A stretch of DNA of 64,000 bases, taken from positions 62,001 to 126,000 of the forward strand of contig DATNQD010000081.1 of assembly GCA_036702865.1 (NCBI GenBank), given 5' to 3'. Source of the DNA: Trichocoleus sp. Its GTDB lineage: Bacteria; Cyanobacteriota; Cyanobacteriia; Elainellales; Elainellaceae. Of the stretch, positions 58,835 to 63,496 are shown piece by piece. Each line of letters starts with the position of its first letter. Position 1 is the stretch's first letter. Position numbers and translations under genes: made by a program. The notes under the pieces are model-generated. The model searched no databases. It saw only the letters and a list, made by a program, of their open reading frames with translations, and was not told where the DNA came from.

Positions 58835-61810
58835 ATGAGACAGGAAGGAGATGCCGCATTCCTAGCTCGAACCGGGAAAAATGCGATCGGGCGAGGCTGG
58901 TTGCGTTGGGTAAATCTGCGTCCAGAGGAAAGTGGACGAACGTTTTCGATGTTTGCCTTCTATACGCTCTCTTCCGTCGGCATTTTGTGGCTGGAGGTCA
59001 GCGTTGCAGCCCTGTTTTTAGGTGAATATGGTGCTCAATCATTGCCCTGGATCTACCTTGCGAGTGCCGGAATTGGGACAGGCTTAGGATTCATCTATTC
59101 CTGGCTTCAGCGCATTTTGCCTTTAAGGGGGGCGATCGTTCTAACTTCGGTACTGATGACGCTGCCGCTGTTGCTGTTTCGCGTCGGGCTAAATCCGGCG
59201 TTGCTGGGTGGATATACCATCTTTTTGATGCGGCTCTGGCTGGAAGCAATCTACGTCATCAATGAACTGAACACATCCATTACCGCTAATCAGCTCTTTA
59301 CAATCCGAGAAATTAAGCGCACCTATCCATTTATTAGTAGCGGTATCCTGGCAGCAGATGTCATTAGCGGCTTCTCCTTACCTTTGCTGCGAAGTCTCAT
59401 CGGGTTGCCGAATGTCATTCTGATGGCTTGCCTGATGCTATTTATTGGCTCTGGGATTCTGTTTTATCTCACTAGAGCCTACGCGCAGTTCTTCCCAGAT
59501 GCTTCTCGACGCCGAGCGCAGAGCAAACAGCAAGACTTCACGGCAAAAAGGTTGAAAGGCTCACTACGGCAATATGTCTGGCTTGTCATTGCGGTTTTTC
59601 TGATGGTGCAGGTGCTGGCATTGCTGCTGGACTTCCAATATCTCAGCCAAATTGAGCAGAGTATGGAGGTTGATGTTGAGCAAATCGCTGACTTTCTCGC
59701 CCTCTTTAGTGCCATTTTGGGCATTTTTGAACTGCTGACCCAATGGTTTATTTCTGGGCGAATCGTAGAACGGTTGGGCGTGTTTGTAGTAGCGCTGCTG
59801 CCACCTGTGGCGATCGTGGGTCTCAGTGCCTTGACGCTGATAGGGGCACTCAAGCTATTTGTCGGCATTGTCATTCTCAAATTTGTGGATGAACTGCTCC
59901 GCTATACCTTTGTCGCCAGTACGGGTCCAGTCCTCTTTCAGCCCATTCCAGATGGGATTCGCAATCGGGTTCAGTCTTTTGTCCGAGGGATTGCCGAACC
60001 GCTGGTAACCGGACTGACAGGGCTGGGAATGCTGACAACCATTTGGCTCGTTGAACAAGTTTCGACCAGCAAAGCCGAAGTGTTTCAGCGAACGCAAAGT
60101 TTGATATTTCTGGTTTACACGGCTCTGTTTGCGCTGGGCTGGCTTCTGGCGATTTTCCTGCTGCGATCGAAGTATCTGGATGTGCTGGTGTTGAGCACGG
60201 AACGGGGACGAATTAGTTTGTCCGAATTAGATTTGCAGGCATTTAAGCGCAGTATTGTTGAAGCGTTAAATCGTTCCAGCCCAGAAGCAGAAAAAAAATC
60301 TTGTATTGAGCTTCTGACGCAAATTGACCCCAAAAATGTCAGTGATATCCTCACGCCACTGCTGCCTAGTTTTCCCCCTGCGCTCCAGCGTCAAAGCTTA
60401 GAGGTGATGCTGAATGCACCCAGTGCGGTCTATCTAAAATCTGTGCGGCAGTTGTTAGATCGTCCACTTCCTCCAGAGGTTGTTGCCGTTGCTCTACGTT
60501 ATGTTTGGCTGACTGAGCCAGACCCAGAGATTGGGCAACTTCGTCGCTATTTGAAGCCAGCAGTTGATCCGGTCGTGCGAGGGACAGCAGCTTCCCTGAT
60601 GTTACGGCGCGGCAATCCACAGCAGAAAGCAGAAGCAACCGATACCCTGCGACGAATGCTCACTCACAAGCAAGAACGAGAGCGGGTCATGGGCTGTCGG
60701 GCATTGGGTGAGGCAATGTATCTGCAGTCGCTGCGGCTCTATATTAAATCCCTGTTGCAAGATGAATCGTTGCGGGTGCGCTGTGCCATCTTAGAAGCGA
60801 TCGCCGCTACTCATTTGGAAGAATACTATCCAGTACTGCTGCGGGGGCTCCGCTACAAATCCACTCGCGAAGCAGCAATGCGGGCACTGGTGCGCTTGGA
60901 GAATGAAGCCATTCCGCTATTGGTGAAACTGGCAGAAGATCCTTACCAACCTGACATCGTGCGGTTCCATGCTTGGAGCGCGATCGGGCAAATTGGCACC
61001 ACAGATGCATTGAATGTGTTGGTATCGCGATTGATGACTGCCTGGGGAGCCAACCGCCAAACGCTGCTGCGAATTCTGCTTAAGCTGCCTCATGAAGCTG
61101 GAATTGAAGCAGTTGCTGACACCCTTGGACGCAGCGGCATCGAAACATTCATCAACCAAGAACTGCTGTTTCTGGCACAACTCTATGCCAGCATGCTAGA
61201 CCTCAACGCAGAGCAAGTTCCAGGTGAAATTGCCGATTTGCTCCGGCGTGCCCTTCGAGACTCTGAGCGAGATGGAATCGATCGTCTGTTTTTGCTCATG
61301 CGCTTTCTTTATGACGCAGATGCAATTCAGGCAGCAGCATTCAGCATTGAGTCAGATTCGCGGGTAAGTGTGGCGAGAGGGCTGGAAATTCTCGACAACA
61401 CTCTGGATATTTCTAGCAAACAGGCGTTGCTCAACATCCTTGACCAGCAGGACAATGTCGTAAAACTGCAAAGCCTGACAGATTTTCTCCGCTATCAGCC
61501 CATGCAGCCTACCCAAAGACTGCGCCATCTGGTTGAACTGCGCCATTTCCTCTCTGATTGGACATTAGCTTGCTGCTTCCACCTTGCTCGGCAAGCCCGC
61601 TGGAGCCTCACCTCCGAACAAATCCTTTCCTGCCTCCGCTCCCCCACAAGCTACGTCCGAGAAGCAGTGCTATCTTACCTGCGTGCCGTCTCCCCCAGAA
61701 CCTTAAACGACCTCCTACCTTACCTCAAGGACGATCCCGATCCGCTGATCGTTGCCCAGGTTCAAGAGATTCTGGCAAAATCTGCACTGATAATGAGTAA
61801 TCGCCCATGA
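58835..61810 (+). CDS. NTT-like (ADP/ATP carrier-type) MFS transporter with C-terminal HEAT repeats
   Basis: A 991-residue membrane protein. Residues about 35-440 form a transporter core of about 12 helices (VNLRPEESGRTFSMFAFYTL, WLEAIYVINELNTSITANQ, REIKRTYPFISSGILAADV, the pattern of NTT/Npt-type nucleotide carriers). Residues about 490-980 hold HEAT-like helical repeats (RQSLEVMLNAPSAVYLKSV, RVMGCRALGEAMYLQSLRL, EAAMRALVRLENEAIPL). HEAT-fused NTT relatives occur in free-living bacteria (established knowledge); their substrates are mostly unknown. It is followed 73 bases later by a cNMP-binding protein. Confidence 0.8.
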   Translation: MRQEGDAAFLARTGKNAIGRGWLRWVNLRPEESGRTFSMFAFYTLSSVGILWLEVSVAALFLGEYGAQSLPWIYLASAGIGTGLGFIYSWLQRILPLRGAIVLTSVLMTLPLLLFRVGLNPALLGGYTIFLMRLWLEAIYVINELNTSITANQLFTIREIKRTYPFISSGILAADVISGFSLPLLRSLIGLPNVILMACLMLFIGSGILFYLTRAYAQFFPDASRRRAQSKQQDFTAKRLKGSLRQYVWLVIAVFLMVQVLALLLDFQYLSQIEQSMEVDVEQIADFLALFSAILGIFELLTQWFISGRIVERLGVFVVALLPPVAIVGLSALTLIGALKLFVGIVILKFVDELLRYTFVASTGPVLFQPIPDGIRNRVQSFVRGIAEPLVTGLTGLGMLTTIWLVEQVSTSKAEVFQRTQSLIFLVYTALFALGWLLAIFLLRSKYLDVLVLSTERGRISLSELDLQAFKRSIVEALNRSSPEAEKKSCIELLTQIDPKNVSDILTPLLPSFPPALQRQSLEVMLNAPSAVYLKSVRQLLDRPLPPEVVAVALRYVWLTEPDPEIGQLRRYLKPAVDPVVRGTAASLMLRRGNPQQKAEATDTLRRMLTHKQERERVMGCRALGEAMYLQSLRLYIKSLLQDESLRVRCAILEAIAATHLEEYYPVLLRGLRYKSTREAAMRALVRLENEAIPLLVKLAEDPYQPDIVRFHAWSAIGQIGTTDALNVLVSRLMTAWGANRQTLLRILLKLPHEAGIEAVADTLGRSGIETFINQELLFLAQLYASMLDLNAEQVPGEIADLLRRALRDSERDGIDRLFLLMRFLYDADAIQAAAFSIESDSRVSVARGLEILDNTLDISSKQALLNILDQQDNVVKLQSLTDFLRYQPMQPTQRLRHLVELRHFLSDWTLACCFHLARQARWSLTSEQILSCLRSPTSYVREAVLSYLRAVSPRTLNDLLPYLKDDPDPLIVAQVQEILAKSALIMSNRP

Positions 61811-61883
61811 GTTACTCAATTCTTGTCCTTCAAGCTTGCCCGCATCTCCCCACTTCTCCTCACTTTTCATTCTTCGTCTCCCC

Positions 61884-62336
61884 ATGCTAACTAGCGTCGA
61901 TCGCCTCCTATTTGTCCGCAAAGTGCCAATTTTTCAGGAATTGCGCGATGACTTTCTGGTGCGTCTCGCCGCCTCAATGGAAGAACTTTCTTTTCCCACC
62001 AAGCATACGATTTTTACGCAAGGGGAAGAAGGACGATCGCTCTATGTTCTGGTATCAGGACGAGTACGAGTGCACATTGGCGATCGAGAAATCGTACAGC
62101 TTGAGCAGGGAGCTTGCTTTGGAGAAATGGCAGTATTTGATGCAGAACCTCGATCGGCTTCCGTCACCACAATGGAACTTTGCGAGTGTTTGATGCTAAC
62201 GCAGCTGCAGCTCTACGACGCGATCGAGGAGACGCCTGGCATTGCTATTAACATTATTCGCTTACTTTCTCGACGCACCCGCGAACTGAATCAAACAATC
62301 AACGCACTCAGTCAACGCATGAGACAGGAAGCCTAA
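61884..62336 (+). CDS. Cyclic-nucleotide-binding domain protein
   Basis: A 150-residue protein consisting almost only of a cNMP-binding domain: LLFVRKVPIFQELRDDFL, then HTIFTQGEEGRSLYVLVSGR and the phosphate-binding cassette FGEMAVFDAEPRSASVTTME, then the hinge helix IIRLLSRRTRELNQ. No HTH follows, so it is not a CRP-type regulator. Pairing with the NTT-HEAT carrier suggests it senses cAMP, cGMP or another nucleotide and regulates that transporter (inference). ATG 61884 is used. Confidence 0.85.
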   Translation: MLTSVDRLLFVRKVPIFQELRDDFLVRLAASMEELSFPTKHTIFTQGEEGRSLYVLVSGRVRVHIGDREIVQLEQGACFGEMAVFDAEPRSASVTTMELCECLMLTQLQLYDAIEETPGIAINIIRLLSRRTRELNQTINALSQRMRQEA

Positions 62337-62369: not shown

Positions 62370-63308
62370 TTATCGTCGATCGTTTGCGCGAATTTGCGGC
62401 AAGAATTGCCCCGGATCCTGAGCCACCCAACCCAGATTGGAGTTCGATCGCACCTCAAAATGCAAGTAAGTAGAGCCAGCCTGAGAACTACTAGACTGAG
62501 CACCACTAGACTGAGCACCAACTGTCCCAATTTGTTGCCCTGCCTGAACCTGCTGCCCCGATCGGACTGCTACCGCACCCAGTTGCGAATAGCGGGTCTG
62601 TAGTCCTTGAGCATGATTAATCACAATCAGCTTGCCCTCTCCGGTCTGGTTGCCTACAAAGGCGATCGTCCCTGCCCCCACTGCTAAAACAGGCGTTCCT
62701 GAAGTTGCTGATAAGTTCACGCCACTATGGAAAACAACTTGTCCACTAGCAGGATTAAGTTGCCAGCCATAACGAGTGACAACTGGAGCAACAGCATCGA
62801 GGGGATAGCGATCGATCGGGCTATTGGCAGTAGTGGGAGTAGGGGTAGGCGACCAATTCACCCCAGGGACAAACACAACGCGAGGCGAATCCTGGCAGCC
62901 ATTCACTTCAAATAAAACATCCGCCCGCACGTTATATTTTTTCGCAATCTCCCGCCAGTTGCTACCCGTAGGGACTTCGACGCGAATCCCGTTGTAAGGT
63001 GGAACCAAAATCTCGCTGCCAACTGGAGCCCTCCCCTGACGCAATTGAGGATTCAGCCCAATCAGCGTTGCTGGAATCAGACGGTATTGAGCCGCAATAC
63101 TATTTAGGGTTTCCCCCGATCGCACCCGATGCCGAGTCAGGCGAGACAGAGCAGGTGGCTGACAGGCGGTTGATGAGGAGCTGCTTTGTGCGATTGCTTC
63201 CGAGATTGGCGTCAGGCAGACCCCGATCGGCAAAAGGAGCCACAACACTTGTTTCACTGCTTTCACTACACCTTGAGGCATCTTAAATCGCCTATCTTGA
63301 GATTGCAT
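62370..63308 (-). CDS. LysM and LytM/M23-like protein, probably non-catalytic
   Basis: Exported cell-wall-binding protein, 312 residues from ATG 63308 (an ATG at 63281 is possible). A hydrophobic signal sequence (VLWLLLPIGVCLTPISEAIA) is followed by two LysM domains (RHRVRSGETLNSIAAQYRLI, and a second one near EVPTGSNWREIAKKYNV) and an M23 fold. Zinc and catalytic residues are incomplete: HxxxD is HSGVN (His194, Asn198) and the HxH is YLH (Tyr281, His283). It may act like EnvC or NlpD, activating amidases without hydrolysing peptidoglycan itself. Confidence 0.85.
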   Translation of the reverse strand: MQSQDRRFKMPQGVVKAVKQVLWLLLPIGVCLTPISEAIAQSSSSSTACQPPALSRLTRHRVRSGETLNSIAAQYRLIPATLIGLNPQLRQGRAPVGSEILVPPYNGIRVEVPTGSNWREIAKKYNVRADVLFEVNGCQDSPRVVFVPGVNWSPTPTPTTANSPIDRYPLDAVAPVVTRYGWQLNPASGQVVFHSGVNLSATSGTPVLAVGAGTIAFVGNQTGEGKLIVINHAQGLQTRYSQLGAVAVRSGQQVQAGQQIGTVGAQSSGAQSSSSQAGSTYLHFEVRSNSNLGWVAQDPGQFLPQIRANDRR

Positions 63309-63496
63309 TCCGTCTGATTCAAATTCTGACAAATTTTTGGATAAGCAGGCTTAAGGCAACAGGAACTAGATGTTGAGCAGTCGTCAACCCCCAAACCCGG
63401 TTAACTGCAATCTTTGTTCCAATTCCAAGAAGAATTTGGTTAGATTGGGGGTAGGATATCTGCCAGTGATGCAGGTCGCTCTGTCGGGAAGAAACT

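What the first reader, a model, noticed from the sequence alone, without database searches (positions are those of the whole stretch)
58835..62336. NTT-like nucleotide carrier with HEAT repeats followed by a lone cNMP-binding protein
A carrier-like domain fused to about 490 residues of HEAT repeats, followed by a stand-alone cyclic-nucleotide-binding domain protein without HTH. The arrangement suggests transport or a transport-derived scaffold controlled by a cyclic nucleotide. Nucleotide carriers of this type are best known from intracellular parasites and plastids, so a role in a free-living cyanobacterium is unexpected.
Basis: partly seen in the sequence, partly recalled or inferred. Interest (0 to 1): 0.55.

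Follow-up and report, generated by a model that had tools for sequence, protein, structure and literature searches.

The report
NTT-HEAT carrier with cyclic-nucleotide-binding partner
A cyanobacterial membrane carrier related to the ATP/ADP transporters of plastids and chlamydiae, fused to a repeat scaffold, is encoded next to a small protein with an intact cyclic-nucleotide pocket; this arrangement was described in 2017, but the two genes were present together or absent together in the genomes sampled, even where they are no longer neighbours, which points to one working unit.

Summary
58835-61810 (+) encodes 991 residues: a carrier-like membrane domain (about 1-455) and a HEAT solenoid. The next gene encodes a lone cNMP-binding protein without HTH, probably starting at ATG 61884 (150 aa).

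The window protein alone misses Pfam TLC (PF03219), but a profile of 35 orthologues hits only Arabidopsis and Chlamydia NTT1 among PDB sequences (2.8e-10, 5.7e-7): a divergent NTT relative. The arrangement is published (Major et al. 2017), so it is not unexpected in cyanobacteria.

Added here: (a) carrier and this cNBD orthologue occur in the same 58 of 292 sampled phylum genomes, near each other in 34, apart in 24; a neighbouring control gene does not share the pattern (no tree correction). (b) Of four charged residues important in Arabidopsis NTT1, two acids are kept (37/39, 39/39), two lysines are not (0/39 basic). (c) The cNMP pocket motif is intact in 45/45 entries checked.

Best reading: an NTT-derived membrane unit sensing a cyclic nucleotide, less likely a classical ATP/ADP exchanger. 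Binding, substrate and gating are untested. New member of a known kind; modest interest.

The parts
58835..60199 (+). NTT-like (MFS-fold) membrane carrier domain, about residues 1-455 of the 991-aa protein
   Evidence: orthologue profile hits AtNTT1 and CpNTT1 only; low-confidence model, top VIA-align row AtNTT1 Z 14.5, tied with other MFS carriers; boundary approximate
60227..61789 (+). HEAT-repeat solenoid, about residues 465-985; cytosolic side inferred
   Evidence: PF13646 1.8e-18; designed HEAT (alphaRep) proteins hit by profile; helical in the model, which reaches pLDDT 70 here only over about residues 501-610
61884..62336 (+). stand-alone cyclic-nucleotide-binding-domain protein, 150 aa, no HTH; the listed ORF begins at TTG 61836
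   Evidence: PF00027 2.4e-19; orthologue alignments start mostly at M17 = ATG 61884
62118..62165 (+). phosphate-binding-cassette motif FGEMAVFDAEPRSASV of the cNBD
   Evidence: sequence; FGE and RSA kept in 45 of 45 orthologue entries checked, this gene being one of them

Best explanation
The two genes encode the membrane part and the sensor part of one unit. The first protein is an NTT-derived, MFS-fold carrier domain with a HEAT solenoid on the cytosolic side; the second is a soluble cNBD subunit that docks on the solenoid and passes the cAMP or cGMP level on to the carrier. Shown: homology to NTTs, HEAT repeats, intact pocket motif, joint presence or absence of the two genes whether linked or not, and a single chain in distant relatives. 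Inferred: topology, docking, cyclic-nucleotide binding, gating. The substrate is less likely to be ATP exchanged for ADP in the classical way, because the lysine tied to nucleoside-triphosphate transport is missing; nucleoside diphosphates or another substrate remain possible.
For: NTT: the A4 profile (35 orthologues of 56 held, carrier domain only) against all PDB sequences gave 2 hits, AtNTT1 2.8e-10 and CpNTT1 5.7e-7; by coordinates, the orthologue itself passes PF03219's cut-off in 14 of the 58 genomes. One unit: same 58 of 292 genomes; cNBD downstream on the same strand within 5 kb in 34 of 58, 32 of them within 500 bp, in 17 families; apart in 24, and in the eight such loci fetched (six f6, one f29, one f23) no other neighbour is shared by more than two; one chain NTT-HEAT-cNBD in distant relatives (six loci; five scanned). 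Control gene next door (M23 peptidase) is in 51 of the 58 and in 29 other genomes. Ligand: pocket motif in 45 of 45; the best PDB sequence matches are cGMP-dependent kinases; the genome has 7 class III cyclase matches. Site: K155 and K527 positions non-basic in 39 of 39; E245 position D/E in 37 of 39, E385 position D/E in 39 of 39.
Against: No biochemical data. The genes are apart in 24 of 58 genomes. Co-occurrence is not corrected for ancestry, and the cut-offs were set after seeing gaps in the scores. An intact motif does not prove binding. The K155 position is aligned with low confidence and is Tyr or Phe in single-domain relatives too; a single-domain relative in G011 also lacks a base near K527. 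Other conserved bases exist (R133, R158, K161, R162, R309, R376, R444) and could take over a lysine's role. G085 and G241 hold a 49-50% identical cNBD without an NTT-HEAT match. Both structure models have mean pLDDT under 50, and Foldseek found no match at E<=0.001.
Confidence: 0.5

Rival explanations
1. Classical nucleotide exchanger: the carrier domain moves ATP/ADP (or NAD) across the plasma or thylakoid membrane, and the cNBD adjusts it to the energy state, as Major et al. 2017 speculated.
For: NTT homology; two acids of the site kept; proposal in PMC5381601; other conserved bases could hold phosphates.
Against: K527, thought to matter for nucleoside triphosphate but not diphosphate transport (PMC4256464 passage), is non-basic in 39 of 39 orthologues, and residue 388 close by is acidic in 37 of 39; four single-domain f32 relatives have Arg there, a fifth in G011 does not.
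Confidence: 0.2
2. Transport-dead receptor or scaffold: the NTT fold only anchors or senses, and the HEAT-cNBD part does the signalling.
For: Large HEAT solenoid with many invariant residues; both lysines of the site absent.
Against: Carrier residues stay strictly conserved in 39 orthologues, including the ANQ..RE.KR..P stretch and D/E at 266, as expected of a working carrier, though a receptor could keep them too.
Confidence: 0.25
3. The cNBD protein is an independent regulator and its position beside the carrier is accidental.
For: 24 of 58 genomes have the two genes apart; lone cNBDs without an NTT-HEAT match exist in G085 and G241 at 49-50% identity.
Against: Identical presence in 292 genomes, joint absence in at least eight f6 genomes, closeness in 17 families, one chain in distant relatives.
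Confidence: 0.05

Closest known systems
NTT-HEAT proteins with an adjacent or fused cNBD (Major, Embley and Williams 2017, PMC5381601)
   Same: Same domain order, same gene order, same phylum; the authors already suggested a common operon and a functional link.
   Different: Nothing in the architecture. Added here: joint occurrence even when unlinked, and the state of the four residues.
NTT ATP/ADP translocases (TLC, PF03219; AtNTT1 9j3j, CpNTT1 9j3n)
   Same: Profile-level homology over much of the carrier domain; two acidic residues; ANQ...E.K..P stretch.
   Different: No Pfam match as a single sequence; two lysines absent; HEAT fusion; cNBD partner.
cNBD proteins such as cyclic-nucleotide-dependent kinases and the MlotiK1 channel
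   Same: cNBD with an intact phosphate-binding cassette; sequence matches in PDB.
   Different: The cNBD is a separate small protein, paired with a carrier-like protein instead of a kinase or channel.
SbtA/SbtB of cyanobacteria (recalled, no call)
   Same: A carrier paired with a small cAMP-binding regulator protein.
   Different: Unrelated families: bicarbonate carrier and PII-like protein; no HEAT solenoid, no cNBD.

Membership tests
NTT / TLC nucleotide transporters (PF03219) | Match of this protein to the Pfam TLC model above its cut-off | tested here: not met
   No PF03219 match for the window protein; its orthologue is over the cut-off in 14 of 58 genomes, e.g. G116 33.3 bits, G045 30.5 bits.
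NTT / TLC nucleotide transporters (PF03219) | Homology to solved NTTs in a profile search | tested here: met
   A4 profile: AtNTT1 2.8e-10, CpNTT1 5.7e-7, no other PDB hit at E<=1; full-length A3 profile 6.3e-9 and 6.3e-8.
NTT / TLC nucleotide transporters (PF03219) | MFS-type 12-helix fold | tested here: inconclusive
   Model mean pLDDT 47.4; VIA-align top row AtNTT1 Z 14.5, tied with SLC19A3 and near other MFS carriers; Foldseek nothing at E<=0.001.
NTT / TLC nucleotide transporters (PF03219) | Four charged residues K155, E245, E385, K527 (AtNTT1 numbering) | tested here: not met
   Two of four: acids kept (37/39 and 39/39), lysine positions non-basic in 39/39; numbering mapped by my own count. 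Roles from passages of PMC10654386 and PMC4256464, which also show that working NTTs vary at some of the four.
NTT / TLC nucleotide transporters (PF03219) | Transport of ATP, ADP or NAD | not testable with these tools
   Needs an uptake assay.
NTT-HEAT with cNBD partner (Major et al. 2017) | NTT-like domain followed by HEAT repeats in one chain | tested here: met
NTT-HEAT with cNBD partner (Major et al. 2017) | cNBD gene downstream, or fused | tested here: met
   Window; within 5 kb downstream in 34 of 58 genomes; one chain in six distant loci.
NTT-HEAT with cNBD partner (Major et al. 2017) | Place in the single NTT-HEAT clade of the published tree | not tested
   No tree was built here.
Cyclic-nucleotide-binding domain (PF00027) | Model above cut-off and intact phosphate-binding cassette | tested here: met
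   69.5 bits, cut-off 27.5; FGE...RSA in 45 of 45 entries. Binding itself not tested.

The most novel reading that the evidence does not exclude
The NTT-HEAT/cNBD pair is a carrier gated by a cyclic nucleotide in which the nucleotide-carrier fold was turned to another substrate: bases are gone from both lysine positions of the site while acids are conserved in the same segments (E137, E144, D266, E388). It would link cAMP or cGMP (light, carbon or nitrogen signals) to membrane traffic of a solute that is not ATP. Conserved bases elsewhere in the domain leave this open.
Probability: 0.17. Interest if true: 0.6.

Novelty: new member of a known kind. Interest (0 to 1): 0.33.

Why it matters
The architecture has been in print since 2017, and no functional study of it was seen in the literature searches made here. 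The joint occurrence of the two genes even when unlinked makes a single working unit testable with two knock-outs in a model cyanobacterium, and the missing lysines predict that the obvious first assay (ATP/ADP exchange) may fail, so other substrates should be screened at once.

Tried and rejected
Foldseek with the second model gave no match at E<=0.001; NTT entries rank 3rd and 9th among MFS carriers. VIA-align puts AtNTT1 first, but tied with SLC19A3. Fold alone does not decide NTT against other MFS.

Weak DUF389 match in the carrier domain (22.5 bits, cut-off 23.9): 1 of 17 members scanned; taken as chance.

A single-domain NTT-like protein of the phylum (L092) against A4 by hhalign: collinear over 404 columns, but probability 9 and E 0.0035. 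Used only to look near K527, where the HMMER and hhalign registers differ by two positions; the window orthologues have no base at either (residues 390 and 392).

Fused paralogue in the window's own genome: one search scored 11 of 11 candidates and found only the window gene at E<=0.001. Three long frames with a cNBD were fetched; in two of the stretches no frame over 600 aa was found, and the third starts unlike an NTT by eye. Not settled further.

Neighbour of the lone cNBD in G085: looks by eye like a cation-diffusion transporter; not scanned.

Literature: eight searches ran, some with capped listings, in an open-licence library only; no later functional study of the NTT-HEAT/cNBD pair was seen in those listings. 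A paper on the 9j3 structures was not seen in them and was not read; only PDB titles were.
Full report
What is there. The first ORF, 58835-61810 (+), encodes 991 residues; the second, listed as 61836-62336 with a TTG start, aligns with its orthologues mostly from residue 17, which is ATG 61884, so the product is probably 150 aa. The gap is then about 73 bp and holds no terminator-like site. Pfam finds HEAT_2 in the first protein (1.8e-18) and a cNMP-binding domain in the second (2.4e-19), no HTH. Upstream lies IF-3 on the same strand, downstream a LysM-M23 peptidase on the other.

Is the carrier an NTT? For the window protein alone Pfam's TLC model PF03219 does not match. A profile from 35 orthologues, carrier domain only, searched against 177,635 distinct PDB sequences, returned two hits at E<=1: Arabidopsis NTT1 at 2.8e-10 and Chlamydia NTT1 at 5.7e-7. 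A full-length profile of 39 orthologues gave the same two NTTs at 6.3e-9 and 6.3e-8, besides HEAT-repeat proteins, most of them designed, that match the solenoid. In 292 genomes of the phylum 31 have a PF03219 match at E<=0.01 and 19 one over the cut-off; by coordinates 14 of those 19 are the orthologue of the window gene, the other five are in more distant genomes. So the domain is a divergent NTT relative. The structure models are too poor to add much.

Residues. Four charged residues of Arabidopsis NTT1, K155, E245, E385 and K527, are reported as important for transport, with K527 tied to nucleoside triphosphates but not diphosphates; the same papers show NTTs that vary at some of the four (passages of PMC10654386, and PMC4256464). 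Counting by hand along the HMMER alignment, an offset of 84 between chain and precursor numbering puts a Glu, a Glu and a Lys exactly at E245, E385 and K527; I take that as a check on the offset, which no tool printed. The window's counterparts are E144 (D/E in 37 of 39 orthologues, Asn in 2), D266 (D/E in 39 of 39) and T392 (no Lys or Arg in 39). K155 lies outside the Arabidopsis alignment; through the Chlamydia one, if no gap lies between, it falls on Y74 (Tyr in 39 of 39), at low alignment confidence. In residues 72-88 no Lys or Arg occurs in the 39 except two Arg at 81; in residues 387-404 a base occurs only in two sequences, at 388, which is acidic in the other 37. The distant fused forms lack a base at both positions as well. 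Of five single-domain NTT-like proteins of the phylum that I read, four (family f32) have Arg in the K527 region and one (G011) does not; the f32 ones have Tyr or Phe in the K155 region. Against my reading: other bases are conserved (R133, R158, K161, R162, R309, R376, R444) and, without a good model, I cannot say that none faces the cavity.

Do the genes belong together? Searching the same 292 phylum genomes with each protein, the NTT-HEAT orthologue (43% identity or more in its main match) is in 58 and the cNBD orthologue (E<=1e-50, 62-100% identity) in 58, and the sets are identical. Cut-offs were chosen after seeing wide gaps: the next carrier-like matches are at or below 67 bits or short fragments, the next cNBD at E 2.9e-40. 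In 34 of 58 the cNBD lies downstream on the same strand within 5 kb (32 within 500 bp), in 17 of 18 families; in 24 it does not: 22 of these are in one family, f6; 13 lie on the same contig at 10 kb or more, 11 on another contig. At least eight f6 genomes lack both (G022, G051, G087, G103, G149, G155, G233, G245); two of these keep short carrier fragments of 54 and 45 residues. In eight genomes whose unlinked cNBD surroundings I compared, no other neighbouring ORF is shared by more than two. As a control, the M23 peptidase gene next door has a strong match (E<=1e-34, also set afterwards) in 80 genomes: 51 of the 58 and 29 others, including all eight f6 genomes above. One control gene is little, and the counts are not corrected for shared ancestry. 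Exceptions to a strict pairing: G085 and G241 have a 49-50% identical cNBD and no NTT-HEAT match.

One chain. In six loci (L056-L059, L061, L062) a distant NTT-HEAT-like region and a cNBD are in one reading frame. L059, L061 and L062 come from genomes that also hold the separate pair, so there they are paralogues; L056-L058 come from f32 genomes without it. Five were scanned by Pfam: all five have HEAT_2 and cNMP_binding; three pass PF03219's cut-off (L056 33.5, L057 32.5, L058 29 bits), L059 matches MFS_1, L061 neither.

The cNBD. Its best PDB sequence matches are cGMP-dependent kinases, followed by cAMP-kinase subunits and CRP-type regulators. FGE and RSA of the phosphate-binding cassette are kept in 45 of 45 entries, 40 of them matching a stricter pattern. 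Ser after the pocket arginine is compatible with cGMP as well as cAMP (recalled rule of thumb, no call). The genome has 7 class III cyclase matches and 19 cNMP-binding matches, 17 over the cut-off, so this cNBD is one of many, singled out by its tie to the carrier.

What is known. Major, Embley and Williams 2017 (PMC5381601; parts 1 to 3 of 4 of the text read) describe NTT-HEAT proteins, some followed by a cNBD gene at a distance of several nucleotides, and NTT-HEAT-cNBD fusions, mainly in bacteria including cyanobacteria, resolved as one clade; they suggest one operon and a cAMP-linked adjustment of ATP uptake, and say that none of the cyanobacterial ones is characterised. The finding is thus a new member of a published kind. 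Eight literature searches listed no later functional study. A carrier paired with a cAMP-binding regulator is known in cyanobacteria from unrelated families, SbtA/SbtB (recalled).

Mechanism. Most likely the cNBD binds cAMP or cGMP, docks on the HEAT solenoid and switches the carrier. Homology, co-occurrence and motif are shown; binding, docking and switching are inferred. Because the triphosphate-linked lysine is absent, classical ATP/ADP exchange is less likely than in characterised NTTs, and a non-transporting scaffold cannot be excluded.

Noticed in passing
L056-L059, L061, L062: Distant relatives with NTT-HEAT-like region and cNBD in one chain (1012-1058 aa with my choice of start); in L059, L061 and L062 the genome also holds the separate pair.
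   Followed up: partly
L079:5925-6398: A lone cNBD (50% identical) in a genome without an NTT-HEAT match, followed directly by a gene that looks by eye like a cation-diffusion transporter; the second such genome (G241, L080) has a related neighbour gene.
   Followed up: no
L075, L092, L093, L094: Single-domain NTT-like proteins in family f32 genomes with a long insertion between the two halves and Arg in the region of K527.
   Followed up: partly
L081, L082: Two f6 genomes keep only 54- and 45-residue remnants of the NTT-HEAT gene and lack the cNBD orthologue.
   Followed up: partly
G072:C4:694327-694755 and G127:C83:75629-76054: The cNBD match carries one in-frame TAG in each of these two genomes of one genus, while the carrier match has no stop inside.
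   Followed up: no
window 62373-63332: LysM-M23 peptidase gene on the opposite strand; its best matches in the other genomes listed do not lie beside the pair.
   Followed up: partly
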